A DNA stretch of 18,345 nt from an uncultured Ruminococcus sp. (GTDB taxonomy: Bacteria; Bacillota_A; Clostridia; Oscillospirales; Ruminococcaceae), in assembly GCA_946629405.1 (NCBI GenBank), contig CAMOXW010000131.1:1-18345 (forward strand), read 5' to 3'. The notes beneath the pieces were generated by a model. The model saw only the letters and a program-made list of their open reading frames with translations, was not told the origin of the DNA and made no database searches. Every line of letters starts with the position of its first letter. Position 1 is the stretch's first letter. Made by a program: the position numbers and the translations under genes. Positions 721 through 14,832 of this stretch are shown piece after piece.

Positions 721-2010
721 TTATCTTATCGCTGCAAATGCACCGTCAAGAGCTGCGATGAGGTCGTCGATATGCTCGGTGCCTATCGAAAGGCGGATAG
801 TATTGGGCTTGATGCCCTGCTCGAGCAGCTCGCTCTCCGTGAGCTGTGAATGTGTGGTCGAAGCCGGGTGGATAACGAGAGACTTTACGTCCGCAACATT
901 AGCGAGGAGCGAGAAAATACTGAGATTGTCGATGAACTTCTTTGCATCGTCCTCGCTGCCCTTTATATCAAATGTGAAGATGCTTCCGCCGCCGTTGGGG
1001 AAGTATTTTCTGTATACCTCATGGCTCGGCTCGGAGCTGAGCGACGGGTGATGAACAGCCTCTACCTGCGGATGCTTTGCGAGGTAATCAACTATCTTCT
1101 GGGCGTTTGAGGTATGTCTCTCAACGCGGAGTGAGAGCGTTTCAAGTCCCTGGAGGAAGATGAAGGCGTGGAAGGGCGAAAGAGTTGCGCCTGTATCCCT
1201 GAGGAGGATAGCGCGGATATATGTCACGAAGGCTGCGGGGCCGGCTGCTGCCGTGAAGCTTACACCGTGGTAGCTGGGATTGGGCTCGGATACCCACGGA
1301 TAACGTCCGGATCCTGCCCAGTCGAAGTTCCCGCTGTCAACGATAACACCGCCTATTGCCGTACCGTGACCGCCGATGAACTTAGTAGCGGAATGAACGA
1401 CTATATCAGCGCCGTACTCGATAGGACGGACGAGATAGGATGTAGCAAAGGTATTGTCAACAACGAGCGGGATGCCGTGAGCGTGTGCTATCTTAGCTAT
1501 CTTTTCTATGTCGATAGCGTTGGAATTAGGGTTGCCGAGGGTCTCGATGAAGACAGCCTTTGTATTCTCATTGATAGCAGCTTCAAATGAGCCTTCCACC
1601 TGAGGATCGGCGAATGAAGCGGTTATACCGTAGAGCGGGAGAGTGTGGGCGAGCAGGTTGTAGGTGCCGCCGTAAATGGTCTTTGAGGCAACGATGTTCT
1701 CGCCAGCCTTTGCAAGAGCCTGTATAGCGTAGGTTATAGCTGCTGCGCCGGAGGCTGTAGCGAGGGCGGCAACACCGCCTTCAAGAGCAGCGATGCGCTT
1801 CTCGAAAACGTCCTGGGTGGAATTAGTAAGCCTGCCGTAGATATTGCCGGGGTCCTTGAGGCCGAAGCGGTCAGCGGCGTGCTGTGAGTTATGGAAAACG
1901 TAAGAAGTTGAAGCGTATATCGGAACTGCCCTTGCATCTGTAGCGGGGTCAGCCTGCTCCTGTCCGACGTGGAGCTGAAGGGTCTCGAAATGTAATTTAT
2001 TGTCAGCCAT
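721..2010 (-). CDS. metY: O-acetylhomoserine sulfhydrylase (aminocarboxypropyltransferase)
   Basis: A 429-residue PLP enzyme of the Cys/Met-metabolism (gamma) family. It makes homocysteine from O-acetylhomoserine and sulfide in the cytosol (direct sulfhydrylation for methionine) and often also acts on O-acetylserine. Family features seen are ETLQLHVGQ and DPATDARAVPIYASTSYVF at the N-terminus, YGRLTNSTQDVFEKRIAALEGG (about 58-79), VVDNTF (183-188), and the PLP-lysine motif SATKFIGGHGTAIGG with K210. Length is typical of MetY rather than MetB/MetC. The ATG at 2010 has a strong AGGAGG ten bases upstream. The gene has its own promoter and a leader ORF (2074-2157) and ends at a terminator, so it is monocistronic. 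The neighbouring CysK-type enzyme at 12581-13507 shares its regulatory signals. Identity as MetY rather than a broader sulfhydrylase is fairly secure. Confidence 0.95.
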   Translation of the reverse strand: MADNKLHFETLQLHVGQEQADPATDARAVPIYASTSYVFHNSQHAADRFGLKDPGNIYGRLTNSTQDVFEKRIAALEGGVAALATASGAAAITYAIQALAKAGENIVASKTIYGGTYNLLAHTLPLYGITASFADPQVEGSFEAAINENTKAVFIETLGNPNSNAIDIEKIAKIAHAHGIPLVVDNTFATSYLVRPIEYGADIVVHSATKFIGGHGTAIGGVIVDSGNFDWAGSGRYPWVSEPNPSYHGVSFTAAAGPAAFVTYIRAILLRDTGATLSPFHAFIFLQGLETLSLRVERHTSNAQKIVDYLAKHPQVEAVHHPSLSSEPSHEVYRKYFPNGGGSIFTFDIKGSEDDAKKFIDNLSIFSLLANVADVKSLVIHPASTTHSQLTESELLEQGIKPNTIRLSIGTEHIDDLIAALDGAFAAIR

Positions 2011-2073: not shown

Positions 2074-2157
2074 TTATAAACATCGCTGTCTGCACATTCG
2101 GTCCATTCCACGGATAATTGAACGGAGACGGCTCAGTGTATTCAGTTTTTTCATCAT
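2074..2157 (-). CDS. Putative Cys-containing leader peptide of metY (27 aa)
   Basis: Between the metY promoter and metY there is a complete 27-codon frame with its own ribosome site (AGGAG, six bases before ATG 2157-2155). It begins MMKKLNTLSRLRS and ends RMCRQRCL before TAA. Two Cys codons lie within the last six residues, and the peptide is Arg-rich. It stops 63 bases before the metY start. Placement in the 5' leader of a sulfur-assimilation gene, good initiation signals and C-terminal Cys codons suggest a leader peptide whose translation senses charged tRNA-Cys. I see no strong intrinsic terminator between it and metY, so the mechanism could be translational or Rho-dependent. A very similar arrangement precedes cysK (13562-13597). 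Confidence 0.62.
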   Translation of the reverse strand: MMKKLNTLSRLRSIIRGMDRMCRQRCL

Positions 2158-2170
2158 TGCCACTCCTTTT

Positions 2171-2180
2171 GTTTAGTATG
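2171..2180 (-). promoter_or_regulatory. Candidate operator CATACTAAAC at the metY start site
   Basis: The minus strand reads CATACTAAAC beginning five bases after the -10 box, overlapping the expected +1. The same ten bases lie within the Rrf2 gene promoter (10190-10199), and CATACCAAAC is at the identical spacing in the cysK promoter (13635-13644). Probable binding site of the Rrf2-family regulator; inference from recurrence and position. Confidence 0.55.
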
Positions 2181-9684: not shown

Positions 9685-10116
9685 TCATATACAATAGTCA
9701 CCGCCGGTGGAGTTTTTGTCGATGATATCCTTGAGGGTAATACTGTCAAGGTATTCGGAAACCGTCTTGAACAGCCCCTCCCAGACAAAAAGCGTGGAAC
9801 ACTCTCCGCGGCGCGGACACTCGTTCGGCTCGTAGTCGAGGCAGGGGACAGGCGCAAGGCTTCCCTCGGTCGCTCTGAGGATGTCGCCGACTGTATAATC
9901 TGAAGGCTTCTGGGCAAGCATATAGCCGCCGCGGTTGCCGCGGTTAGTCCTGAGAAAGCCTCCGCGGTTGAGGAGCGGAACGATCTGCTCGAGGTATTTT
10001 TTCGAGATATTCTGGCGTTCGGCGATGTCCTTCAGCGAAACATAGCCTTCCTCCTGATGAAGTGCAAGGTCGCAGAGCATACGCAGGGCGTATCTGCCTT
10101 TTGTCGAAATTTTCAT
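9685..10116 (-). CDS. Rrf2-family transcriptional regulator (IscR/CymR-like)
   Basis: A 143-residue DNA-binding protein beginning MKISTKGRYALRMLCDLALH, the standard Rrf2 winged-helix opening. IAERQNISKKYLEQIVPLLNRGGFLRTNRGNRGGYML (31-67) is the recognition helix and wing. A Cys set, C92, C100 and C106 (C-x7-C-x5-C), resembles the Fe-S ligand trio of IscR (C-x5-C-x5-C), so an iron-sulfur cluster is plausible; B. subtilis CymR, the cysteine repressor, is not known for such a cluster. The start is ATG 10116, with GGAG upstream; an eight-codon extension lacks a site. A motif in its own promoter recurs in the metY and cysK promoters, suggesting it autoregulates and controls those sulfur genes. Whether it senses cluster status, O-acetylserine or cysteine cannot be settled from sequence. 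Confidence 0.9.
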   Translation of the reverse strand: MKISTKGRYALRMLCDLALHQEEGYVSLKDIAERQNISKKYLEQIVPLLNRGGFLRTNRGNRGGYMLAQKPSDYTVGDILRATEGSLAPVPCLDYEPNECPRRGECSTLFVWEGLFKTVSEYLDSITLKDIIDKNSTGGDYCI

Positions 10117-10177
10117 AGAATTCTCCTTAAATATCCGCATCAGGTCTGCATTATGCGGATAATGATGTTATACTATT

Positions 10178-10206
10178 ATTATACCATAGGTTTAGTATGT
10201 TTTCAA
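10178..10206 (-). promoter_or_regulatory. Promoter of the Rrf2 gene
   Basis: Minus strand TTGAAA (10206-10201), 17-base spacer, TATAAT (10183-10178), about 60 bases upstream of the ATG at 10116. Confidence 0.82.
10190..10199 (-). promoter_or_regulatory. Candidate Rrf2 operator CATACTAAAC between -35 and -10
   Basis: The motif occupies the promoter spacer and is followed by CTATGGTAT, so ATAC and GTAT form a partial dyad across it. The same ten bases are in the metY promoter and nine of ten in the cysK promoter. A site between -35 and -10 fits autorepression. Confidence 0.55.
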
Positions 10207-12580: not shown

Positions 12581-13507
12581 TTATTCAAACATAGGAGTTG
12601 AGAGATATCTCTCGCCGGTGTCGGGGAGCAGAGCAACGATGGTCTTGCCCTTATTCTCGGGGCGCTTGGCAAGCTGGATAGCTGCCCATACAGCCGCACC
12701 GGAGGAAATTCCGACGAGCACGCCCTCTGTTCTTGCGATAGTTCTGCCTGTCTCGAAAGCCTCCTCATTGCCGACGGTAATGACCTCATCGTAGATGCTT
12801 GTATTCAGTGTTTCCGGAACGAAACCTGCACCGATACCCTGGATCTTATGAGGACCAGCCTTGCCCTCTGAGAGAACTGGTGAGCCGACCGGTTCAACTG
12901 CAACGACCTTGACATTGGGGTTCTGAGACTTGAGATAAGCGCCTGTACCGCTGACTGTACCGCCTGTACCTACGCCTGCAACGAATATATCGACCTTACC
13001 GTCGGTATCGTTCCAGATCTCAACACCGGTAGTTTTTTCATGGATAGCAGGGTTAGCGGGGTTAGTAAACTGTGAGGGGATGAAGCTTCCGGGGATCTCA
13101 GCGGCGAGCTCCTCAGCCTTAGCGATAGCGCCCTTCATGCCCTTTGTGCCGTCCGTGAGGACAAGCTCTGCACCGTAAGCCTTCATAAGATTGCGGCGTT
13201 CGATACTCATGGTCTCAGGCATAGCTATGATAAGACGGTAGCCGCGGGCTGCTGCAACGGAAGCGAGACCGATTCCGGTATTGCCGCTGGTAGGCTCAAT
13301 GATAACGCTGCCAGGCTTGAGAAGGCCTTTTTCCTCGGCGTCATCGATCATAGCCTTTGCGATCCTGTCCTTAACGCTTCCGGCGGGGTTGAAGTATTCG
13401 AGCTTGCCGACGATCTTTGCGTCAAGTCCGAACTGTTCCTCAATATTTGAGAGTTCAAGCAGGGGTGTACCTCCGATGAGGTCAGTGATCTTCTTATAAA
13501 TGCTCAT
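12581..13507 (-). CDS. cysK: Cysteine synthase A (O-acetylserine sulfhydrylase)
   Basis: A 308-residue PLP enzyme that makes cysteine from O-acetylserine and sulfide in the cytosol. Family signatures are IGGTPLLEL near the N-terminus, the PLP lysine K46 in [34 protein letters not shown] (the substrate-binding loop), [15 protein letters not shown] (phosphate-binding loop), [15 protein letters not shown] and [11 protein letters not shown]. Length is typical of CysK. The ATG at 13507 has AAGGAG eight bases upstream. It has its own promoter and an unusually informative leader with an 11-codon ORF ending in Arg-Arg-Cys-Cys-Arg. No cysE (serine acetyltransferase) is in this window. Confidence 0.97.
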
Positions 13508-13552
13508 AATAATTACTCCTTTTCTGTTATAAAAATAATATGTTCGTTAAAT

Positions 13553-13581
13553 AAAAACTATTCAGCGGCAACATCGCCGCT
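13553..13581 (-). promoter_or_regulatory. Hairpin over the Cys codons of the cysK leader, then T-tract (possible attenuator)
   Basis: Minus strand AGCGGC (13581-13576), loop GATGTT, GCCGCT (13569-13564), then GAATAG and TTTTT (13557-13553). The Cys codons TGT and TGC lie in the loop and 3' arm, so a ribosome stalled there would open the hairpin. The T-tract is six bases from the stem, which weakens a terminator reading; a translational role is equally possible. Confidence 0.45.
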
Positions 13582-13597
13582 TTAAAATCCTTTGCAT
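13562..13597 (-). CDS. Putative leader peptide of cysK, MQRILKRRCCR
   Basis: An 11-codon frame with ATG 13597-13595 and stop TGA 13564-13562, preceded by GAGGTG four to five bases upstream. It lies between the cysK promoter and cysK. The peptide MQRILKRRCCR contains two adjacent Cys codons just before the stop. Like the metY leader it is basic and has its Cys codons at the C-terminus. This fits sensing of charged tRNA-Cys by ribosome stalling, as known in principle for attenuators of amino-acid genes and for poly-Cys leader ORFs in mycobacteria. The role here is inference. Confidence 0.65.
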   Translation of the reverse strand: MQRILKRRCCR

Positions 13598-13634
13598 TTT
13601 ATCACCTCAGAAGAATTTGCTATATTTCCTATCT

Positions 13635-13644
13635 GTTTGGTATG
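13635..13644 (-). promoter_or_regulatory. Candidate operator CATACCAAAC at the cysK start site
   Basis: The minus strand reads CATACCAAAC five bases after the -10 box, the same spacing as CATACTAAAC at metY. Probable site for the Rrf2 regulator. Confidence 0.55.
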
Positions 13645-13649
13645 ATTAT

Positions 13650-13678
13650 ATTATATCAGCAATTATTAGTTTTGTCAA
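13650..13678 (-). promoter_or_regulatory. cysK promoter
   Basis: Minus strand TTGACA (13678-13673), 17-base spacer, TATAAT (13655-13650): perfect consensus. It is upstream of the leader ORF and about 145 bases from the cysK ATG, giving a long 5' leader. Confidence 0.88.
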
Positions 13679-13787: not shown

Positions 13788-14750
13788 TTATTCCTTAGCA
13801 GGTGAAGTACCGCTCTGTGTACGGGTCGAAGCAATAGCCTCAAACTCACCGCAGGGCTTGATACCCTGCCATTCGAGCGCATTCGTATCATAGCTCACCC
13901 ATGTCATGAGAGCTGCAACGCCGGGATTATTGTCGAAGCTGATGTAGAAATCAACTGTATCGCCGGGCTGAGCAGTGATCTTGTCGGCGTAAACAACAGG
14001 CCCGCTGACATTTGAAACGTCCTGAGGAGCATCAAGACCTGTACCTACAGCGATAGCGCCGTTGAAGACCTTGGTGCTTCTGTTGAGGCTTACGCCTCCG
14101 ACTGTTGAGATATCGGGATCAATAGCTATAGGATATACCCTTGAGACAGCATCATCCTTGACCTTGAATGTGATTTTTGCAAACTTACCGTTGAAGGTAT
14201 AGTCTATATCCTTCTCGATATCGAGCCAGTAGATGTATCTCATCTGTGTATTGCCGACATAGCTGTCATCAGCGGGCGGAACAGTAACAGCCTCTGTGAC
14301 GGGAACAGCTTCTGTAACTGCAATAGCCTCAGTAACTGCCTGACCGCCGTTCTCGGTAACAGCCTGACCGCCGGCTTCAGTAACGGGAACGTTCTCGGTA
14401 ACAGCCTGTCCGCCGGCCTCGGTAACGGGAACGTACTCGGTAACAGCCTGTCCGCCGGCCTCGGTAACCGGAACATACTCAGTAACAGCTTCCATTTTTT
14501 CCGGGTCGGGCTTGTTATAATCCAAAAGGCCGTTGAGGCTGATGCTGTCGCCCTCAGGCGCGCCGTCCTGGAAGGGAGCTGCGACCATGTAGCCCTCCTC
14601 GTTAGTTATGATCTCGATGGCATCGTCATTGAGAATGTCAGCATTGCCATCACTGCTGTTCTTATCTGAACAGGCAGTGAATGAAATTGAAGCAGCGGCA
14701 ACACAGATAAACGCACCGGCAGCAGCTATCCTTTTCTTTAAATTCTTCAT
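13788..14750 (-). CDS. Secreted lipoprotein with VTE-rich repeats and a cohesin-like, apparently permuted domain
   Basis: A 320-residue protein. Residues 1-27 form a signal peptide with a lipobox ending SFTAC (C27), so it is probably anchored to the outer face of the membrane. Residues 88-156 are tandem repeats: AVTEYVPVTEAGGQ twice, AVTENVPVTEAGGQ once, then shortened copies, likely an extended linker. Residues about 165-236 (DYTFNGKFAKITFKVKDDA, VYPIAIDPDIS, NGAIAVG) look like the C-terminal half of a cohesin. Residues 250-300 (VVYADKITAQPGDTVDFYIS, NNPGVAALMTWVSYDTNALEW) look like the N-terminal half, so the order is reversed. Start ATG 14750 is chosen over 14768 because AAAGGA lies nine bases before it. 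Function unknown; dockerin binding or surface attachment is possible. No dockerin or cellulase is in the window. Confidence 0.8.
   Translation of the reverse strand: MKNLKKRIAAAGAFICVAAASISFTACSDKNSSDGNADILNDDAIEIITNEEGYMVAAPFQDGAPEGDSISLNGLLDYNKPDPEKMEAVTEYVPVTEAGGQAVTEYVPVTEAGGQAVTENVPVTEAGGQAVTENGGQAVTEAIAVTEAVPVTEAVTVPPADDSYVGNTQMRYIYWLDIEKDIDYTFNGKFAKITFKVKDDAVSRVYPIAIDPDISTVGGVSLNRSTKVFNGAIAVGTGLDAPQDVSNVSGPVVYADKITAQPGDTVDFYISFDNNPGVAALMTWVSYDTNALEWQGIKPCGEFEAIASTRTQSGTSPAKE
14283..14489 (-). repeat. In-frame tandem repeats encoding AVTE(Y/N)VPVTEAGGQ units
   Basis: Three 42-bp units encode 14-residue repeats, followed by shorter VTE copies, in the linker of the lipoprotein. Copy number may vary between strains by slippage. 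Confidence 0.85.
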
Positions 14751-14832
14751 TTTGATAATTCCTTTCATCTATTGATAAGGCGGAAGTGCCGTCCGCCATG
14801 ATGGTCAAGTGATACATAATTCCGCAATATTA

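What the first reader, a model, noticed from the sequence alone, without database searches (positions are those of the whole stretch)
13562..13597. Eleven-codon leader MQRILKRRCCR before cysK, with its Cys codons inside a hairpin
A second sulfur gene has an independent small basic leader ORF ending in tandem Cys codons. The TGT TGC codons lie in the loop and 3' arm of AGCGGC-GATGTT-GCCGCT, which is followed by a T-tract. Ribosome stalling there would change the fold. Finding the same design at metY and cysK makes chance unlikely.
Basis: partly seen in the sequence, partly recalled or inferred. Interest (0 to 1): 0.75.

Follow-up and report, generated by a model that had tools for sequence, protein, structure and literature searches.

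The report
Cysteine-sensing leader ORF before cysK
In front of a cysteine-making gene lies a tiny, translated-looking reading frame whose rare arginine codon followed by a cysteine codon is kept across many gut clostridia, and similar frames with a methionine codon precede methionine and sulfonate genes, so it probably lets the ribosome itself sense the supply of sulfur amino acids.

Summary
The leader ORF MQRILKRRCCR (13597-13562, minus) is real: strong SD, strong promoter, 54 nt before cysK. Comparison supports it but moves the point of interest. The conserved core is not the hairpin (absent from the two relatives with the most similar CysK) nor tandem Cys codons. It is one in-frame dicodon, CGA-TGT: the rarest Arg codon, then the less-used Cys codon. 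In leaders found by protein similarity only, CGA is the Arg codon directly before Cys/Met in 81 of 88 cases, against 3 of 82 elsewhere in the same small ORFs. The second codon follows the product: Cys before cysK (50 of 51), Met in 21 of 37 at metY, and both before an ssuA-like operon. No conserved terminator or hairpin: only the window's own leader is terminator-like (1 of 53). SD sequestration is seen in a few relatives, not here. Best reading: ribosome-mediated sensing of Cys-tRNA (and Met-tRNA), with slow CGA decoding as amplifier; how a stall acts on cysK is open. Three close relatives lack the ORF while keeping promoter and box. New variant of a known kind (leader-peptide attenuation).

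The parts
13650..13678 (-). sigma-70-type promoter TTGACA-17-TATAAT of cysK
   Evidence: 12 of 12 consensus match
13622..13644 (-). operator-like box CATACCAAACAGATAGGAAATAT just after the -10; core CATACYAAAC
   Evidence: core occurs 3 times in the window (metY, rrf2, cysK promoters), 0.04 expected; similar boxes in most leaders printed
13601..13608 (-). Shine-Dalgarno GAGGTGAT of the leader ORF
   Evidence: read from sequence
13562..13597 (-). leader ORF MQRILKRRCCR
   Evidence: relatives
13571..13576 (-). sensor dicodon CGA-TGT (Arg-Cys), the conserved core
13564..13581 (-). hairpin AGCGGC-GATGTT-GCCGCT around the sensor; present here, not conserved
13516..13522 (-). Shine-Dalgarno AAAGGAG of cysK
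   Evidence: read from sequence
12581..13507 (-). cysK, cysteine synthase A
   Evidence: TIGR01139, 466.6 bits, cutoff 350.95
2074..2157 (-). second leader ORF of the same kind, MMKKLNTLSRLRSIIRGMDRMCRQRCL, before metY; sensors CGA-ATG (2100-2095) and CGA-TGT (2085-2080)
   Evidence: read from sequence; similar leaders
721..2010 (-). metY, O-acetylhomoserine sulfhydrylase
   Evidence: TIGR01326, 621.2 bits, cutoff 495.1

Best explanation
The leader ORF is a ribosome-based sensor of sulfur amino acid supply. Shown by comparison: selection keeps a short, mostly SD-initiated frame in which the rarest Arg codon, CGA, stands directly before the codon of the amino acid that the downstream gene makes (TGT for cysK; ATG and TGT for metY; both for an ssuA-like operon). 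Inferred: when charged tRNA-Cys falls, the ribosome stalls with CGA in the P site and UGU in the A site. CGA is read by tRNA-Arg(ICG) through an I:A pair and UGU by a G:U wobble, so this pair is a slow way to write Arg-Cys and should be very sensitive to Cys-tRNA charging. The parked ribosome, 69 nt ahead of the cysK start here, raises cysK expression, either by keeping the cysK SD free (supported in some relatives) or by protecting the mRNA 5' region from decay (untested). When cysteine is plentiful the ribosome passes the sensor, ends at the nearby stop and leaves. The output step is not established for the window's own leader.
For: (1) Frame: ATG plus SD in frame 0 at 31 of 37 CGATGT sites, 2 and 0 of 37 in the other frames. 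(2) Codon constraint, cysK loci chosen by protein similarity only: of 102 distinct leaders 54 have an SD-preceded ATG uORF with Cys; the codon before Cys is CGA in 47 of 54 and Cys is TGT in 52 of 54, while 15 window genes use CGA for 4 of 224 Arg codons and TGT for 19 of 69 Cys codons. (3) Internal control, protein-selected loci: CGA 81 of 88 directly before Cys/Met, 3 of 82 elsewhere in the same uORFs (Fisher P 6e-36); TGT 64 of 66 after Arg, 28 of 67 otherwise (P 5e-13). (4) Product matching: cysK 50 Cys, 1 Met; metY 21 Met, 16 Cys; ssuA-like leaders, all pattern-selected, carry CGA-ATG-CGA-TGT (8 of 9). (5) uORFs as short as MKRC and MFKRC suit codon sensing better than nascent-chain arrest. 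(6) A tRNA-Arg gene with anticodon ACG in 16 of 20 related genomes and no UCG version with that pattern, which is not exhaustive. [quoted passage not shown]
Against: No conserved RNA structure that would turn a stall into an output in the window's clade. In the window the cysK SD is hardly more accessible without the upstream RNA (0.50 full, 0.56 downstream only, 0.47 upstream shuffled) and shows no special pairing around the sensor (p 0.53). Position +7 (counting C of CGATGT as 0) is G in 52 of 53 sites even where that codon is a stop, and C, C, T, G are enriched at +9, +11, +12, +13: constraint beyond the two codons, which fits an RNA-level motif too. 30 of 82 cysK and 21 of 43 metY leaders have no such uORF by the criteria, among them L162, L163 and L188 with promoter and box kept; and 5 of the 74 uORFs counted there hold Cys but no Arg-Cys or Arg-Met (list). 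One cysK leader (L055) has CGA-ATG-TGC-TGT-TGT. In B. subtilis CGN codons are reported to be read normally even without the inosine enzyme (PMC10454642, abstract), so CGA need not be slow in every Firmicute. Translation and regulation are not shown by any experiment here. The sequences are related by descent, so the P values overstate independence.
Confidence: 0.72

Rival explanations
1. CGAUGUYG (with a weaker C/G-rich tail) is an RNA motif bound by a protein or small RNA; it merely lies in a reading frame.
For: +7 G in 52 of 53 and a tail consensus that runs past the stop codon (the six bases themselves were the selection criterion).
Against: Frame is kept; metY and ssuA-like leaders use CGA-ATG instead, which moves the RNA motif by one base but keeps the codon logic; a metY leader keeps Cys with TGC (L139). 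The extended motif CGATGTYGNCSCTG is not in excess in 60 genomes: 46 hits, 55 for the reversed control (my sums of the table).
Confidence: 0.15
2. Classical transcription attenuation: the leader hairpin plus T-tract is a terminator that a stalled ribosome prevents.
For: The window's hairpin is scored terminator-like; hairpins with the sensor in the loop occur in 7 of 53 leaders against 2.3 with shuffled flanks.
Against: Terminator-like element in 1 of 53 leaders, the window's, 0.7 expected; T-run not adjacent to the stem; hairpin missing in L160 and L161.
Confidence: 0.07
3. Translational attenuation of the erm/cat type is the output throughout: the sensor region pairs with the cysK SD and a stalled ribosome frees it.
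For: Strong complementarity in some leaders, such as L052, L053, L026, L067; 6 of 53 reach p <= 0.05 (binomial 0.048); mean z of the core region -0.43 (se 0.21, n 42) and -0.88 (se 0.39, n 11) in two groups that I set by eye.
Against: Marginal overall: a control region upstream gives 4 of 53, and mean SD accessibility is 0.51 full, 0.56 downstream only, 0.55 upstream shuffled. Absent in the window (p 0.53). A partly different subset appears by folding alone (L035, L047, L057, L062).
Confidence: 0.25
4. The ORF and dicodon are chance or a by-product of descent with no function.
For: Leaders without it exist in close relatives; the leaders are related by descent.
Against: Internal codon control and product-matched second codon; the rest of the peptide changes quickly around a fixed core.
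Confidence: 0.03

Closest known systems
Mycobacterial/actinobacterial cysteine leader peptides (PMC1262725, passages read; Canestrari et al. 2020, 10.1111/mmi.14498, not held: only its title in the reference list and one sentence about it in PMC13236596 were seen)
   Same: short ORFs with Cys codons before cys genes, no conserved terminator; PMC13236596 describes the M. smegmatis case as translation attenuation
   Different: those are runs of Cys codons and, by the 2020 title, leaderless; here an SD-led ORF, often with a single Cys, a fixed CGA before it, a Met version, in clostridia
uORFC-8-2 motif before cysS in Rhodobacterales (PMC8632094, passages read)
   Same: uORF with two tandem Cys codons; ribosome-mediated attenuation proposed
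   Different: there UGC dominates, the Cys codons lie in a conserved stem and a U-run terminator is present; no CGA rule in the passages seen
Classical amino acid leader-peptide attenuators (trp, his; recalled)
   Same: regulatory codons in a leader ORF match the product of the operon
   Different: no conserved alternative hairpins or terminator; a sensor codon with a slow codon before it instead of a run
CGA stalling (yeast CGA codon pairs, PMC6301793; his leader codon-context assay, PMC4046918; passages read)
   Same: CGA slows or destabilises elongation; in yeast with CGA in the P site
   Different: those are constructs or quality-control contexts; here the pair seems used as a natural sensor

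Membership tests
ribosome-mediated amino acid sensing by a leader peptide | translatable short ORF with start and SD before the gene | tested here: met
ribosome-mediated amino acid sensing by a leader peptide | conserved codons of the pathway product | tested here: met
   codon after Arg: cysK Cys 50 of 51; metY Met 21 of 37, Cys 16 of 37
ribosome-mediated amino acid sensing by a leader peptide | expression responds to charging of the cognate tRNA | not testable with these tools
   needs reporters or ribosome profiling
classical transcription attenuator (trp type) | intrinsic terminator between leader ORF and gene, conserved | tested here: not met
   1 of 53, 0.7 expected
classical transcription attenuator (trp type) | mutually exclusive conserved hairpins | tested here: not met
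   RNAalifold gives no structure for 16 chosen cysK leaders
translational attenuator (erm/cat type) | main SD paired with the leader ORF region | tested here: inconclusive
   a subset only, not the window
mycobacterial polycysteine leaderless attenuator | leaderless start | tested here: not met
   SD GAGGTGAT some 35 nt inside the transcript predicted from the promoter
mycobacterial polycysteine leaderless attenuator | run of Cys codons | tested here: not met
   two Cys here; many relatives one
nascent-chain arrest peptide | conserved peptide long enough to act in the exit tunnel | tested here: not met
known Rfam riboswitch or T-box | match above gathering score | tested here: not met
   0 matches in the window

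The most novel reading that the evidence does not exclude
CGA is a natural, general 'sensitiser' codon: evolution places the I:A-decoded CGA in the P site before a single hungry codon (UGU for Cys, AUG for Met), giving a structure-free, one-codon amino acid sensor that runs a sulfur regulon (cysK, metY, ssuABC-like) in Ruminococcus and other clostridia, in place of runs of regulatory codons.
Probability: 0.45. Interest if true: 0.85.

Novelty: new variant of a known kind. Interest (0 to 1): 0.7.

Why it matters
It would show that codon-pair kinetics, studied so far (in the papers seen) with engineered leaders and yeast stall pairs, are used in nature to set the sensitivity of an amino acid sensor. 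It also gives a simple signature (SD-led ORF with CGA-TGT or CGA-ATG) for finding sulfur regulons in gut and rumen clostridia. Changing one synonymous base (CGA to CGC) is a clean test.

Tried and rejected
Hairpin/T-tract as terminator: rejected as the conserved device. Frameshift coupling to cysK at the sensor: the +1 and -1 frames stay open into the gene in 14 and 15 of 53, with no common end point. SD sequestration as the general output: a subset only. Extended motif CGATGTYGNCSCTG as a free-standing element: 46 hits in 60 genomes against 55 control hits (my sums). Pattern GGAG..ATG..CGATGTTGA in 148 genomes of the wider family: 69 with a match; those I checked by eye were mostly out of frame. 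Met pattern: 10 of 148 genomes with a match and, in another form, 47 of 60, mostly chance by eye. (53 of 60 genomes with a match, list cut short): I picked in-frame hits by eye and fetched 15 stretches; 14 of 15 show an in-frame sensor uORF before cysK (7), metY (1) or the ssuA-like gene (6); L127 does not. Not run: structure prediction, the protein database search, viral-contig scans, covariance models.

Caveats on counts: one search includes pattern-selected loci (all ssuA-like leaders are of that kind), so the main numbers come, where loci came from protein similarity (window, L001-L080, L130-L189). In one search, 8 of 30 loci (L165, L167, L168, L171, L175, L176, L177, L189) were dropped because a crude start-finding pattern failed, and one duplicate (L172) was dropped. 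In one search, 10 of 30 metY loci (L142, L143, L144, L146, L153, L154, L156, L157, L158, L159) were not shown for the same kind of reason; of the 20 shown, 12 have CGAATGTG. One search uses a wider gene pattern and keeps one leader per distinct last 90 nt; it also misses some loci. In the metY alignment, L139 and L141 were left out, and the 16 cysK leaders there are my choice. The scan covers only fetched loci, most of them fetched for cysK or metY.

Full report
What is there. On the minus strand a perfect promoter (TTGACA, 17, TATAAT; 13678-13650) is followed by an operator-like box, an SD (GAGGTGAT, 13608-13601), the ORF MQRILKRRCCR (13597-13562), a 54-nt AT-rich spacer holding the cysK SD, and cysK (13507-12581). 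The gene is cysteine synthase A. Rfam has no match above gathering score in the window.

Is it more than chance. Listing SD-preceded short ORFs in their upstream regions showed again and again a peptide with KRC, ERC, RCC, RCR or FRCC ahead of cysK. The shared DNA is CGATGT: 37 of 81 leaders against 2.0 in shuffles. In 36 of 37 an in-frame start codon lies upstream without a stop between; with ATG and an SD of at least 4 matching bases it is 31 of 37 in that frame and 2 and 0 of 37 in the other frames (counted from its table).

The codon rule. In 102 distinct cysK leaders found by protein similarity, 54 have an SD-preceded ATG uORF with Cys; the codon before the Cys is CGA in 47 of 54 (CGC in 2), the Cys codon is TGT in 52 of 54, and the next codon is TGA 22, TGC 14, TGT 6, CGN 7, TGG 2, others 3. 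In 15 genes of the window CGA is 4 of 224 Arg codons and TGT 19 of 69 Cys codons. A control inside the uORFs, on protein-selected loci: CGA is 81 of 88 directly before Cys or Met and 3 of 82 elsewhere in the same uORFs; TGT is 64 of 66 after Arg and 28 of 67 otherwise. With pattern-selected loci added the figures are 97 of 104 and 3 of 91 for CGA. So it is not Arg in general, and not rare codons in general, but CGA at that one place that is kept.

Other genes and product matching. The window's metY leader (2157-2074) has CGA-ATG-TGC and CGA-TGT. Of 30 metY loci fetched by protein similarity from 60 related genomes, 20 leaders were shown; 12 of these, the 12 loci most like the window's metY (L130-L141), have CGAATGTG, and the other 8 do not. 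In one search, metY leaders give CGA-ATG 21, CGA-TGT 11, CGA-TGC 1, other Arg codons 4; cysK leaders give CGA-TGT 47, CGC-TGT 3, CGA-ATG 1 (L055). Three metY leader peptides end in R-M-stop, one of them with no Cys at all (MTAIRYITDTERM). A third group, SERMRC followed by C or W, precedes a substrate-binding protein whose best NCBIfam model is SsuA (TIGR01728, 106 bits, below its cutoff of 163.5), with what read by eye as ABC ATPase and permease genes behind it. The amino acid after CGA thus follows the pathway: Cys for cysteine synthase, Met and Cys for the homocysteine synthase, both for a sulfur-source importer. A scan of all fetched loci for such uORFs before long genes returned almost only these three genes; the exceptions are a protein in L028 that I take, from memory, for a glutamate-cysteine ligase, and one protein each in L060 and L113. 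Those loci were mostly fetched for cysK or metY, so this is not a genome-wide regulon.

How it may work. A ribosome that has just added Arg from CGA must accept tRNA-Cys (or tRNA-Met). CGA is read by tRNA-Arg(ICG). [quoted passage not shown] In yeast CGA in the P site destabilises elongation (PMC6301793, passages). In B. subtilis loss of inosine gives +1 shifting at CGA, though CGN codons are still read (PMC10454642, abstract). CGA-UGU is therefore a good candidate for the most supply-sensitive way to write Arg-Cys. This step is inference. A tRNA-Arg gene with ACG anticodon was seen in 16 of 20 related genomes by a simple pattern, none with UCG (not exhaustive).

Output. Hairpins with the sensor in the loop are somewhat more common than with shuffled flanks (7 of 53, 2.3 expected), so a supporting role is possible. 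Pairing of the sensor region with the cysK SD is strong in a few relatives and absent here. Protection of the 5' region from decay by the stalled ribosome is the remaining simple idea; nothing here tests it.

Against. Constraint reaches past the two codons: +7 is G in 52 of 53 sites. 30 of 82 cysK leaders lack such a uORF by the criteria. Some of these (L021, L030, L035, L045, L069) do have the dicodon in an open frame but fail on SD, start codon or stop; others, such as L162, L163 and L188, lack it with promoter and box kept. The data are related by descent. No experiment shows translation or regulation.

Novelty. Searches of the paper library returned, in the listings and passages seen, no report of a CGA rule in natural leaders or of Arg-Cys/Arg-Met leaders in clostridia. 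Cysteine leader peptides as such are known (PMC1262725, PMC8632094), so this is a new variant of a known kind.

Noticed in passing
13635-13644, 10190-10199, 2171-2180 (minus): CATACYAAAC occurs exactly three times in the window, within or next to the promoters of cysK, of an rrf2-family regulator gene and of metY (0.04 expected): probably the operator of that CymR/IscR-like regulator, so these genes may have two layers of control.
   Followed up: partly
9685-10140 (minus): Rrf2-family regulator (TIGR00738 above cutoff); the specific models IscR (118 bits) and CymR (113 bits) are both below cutoff; its own promoter carries the box.
   Followed up: partly
L085:1501-2823, L123:1-2949: SsuA-like binding protein with a Cys-rich N-terminal linker heading an ABC operon behind a SERMRCC leader.
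   Followed up: partly
13788-14768 (minus): Gene upstream of cysK on the same strand: lipoprotein-like start (by eye), VTEAGGQA repeats and a partial Cohesin match.
   Followed up: no
2157-2074 (minus) and metY leaders: metY leader ORFs keep a CUCCG segment (codons LR) that can pair with GGAG of the leader's own SD (RNAalifold, -3.29) or perhaps of metY's SD.
   Followed up: partly
L055:2384: A Lachnospiraceae cysK leader with a different form, GRMCCCLP (CGA ATG TGC TGT TGT).
   Followed up: no
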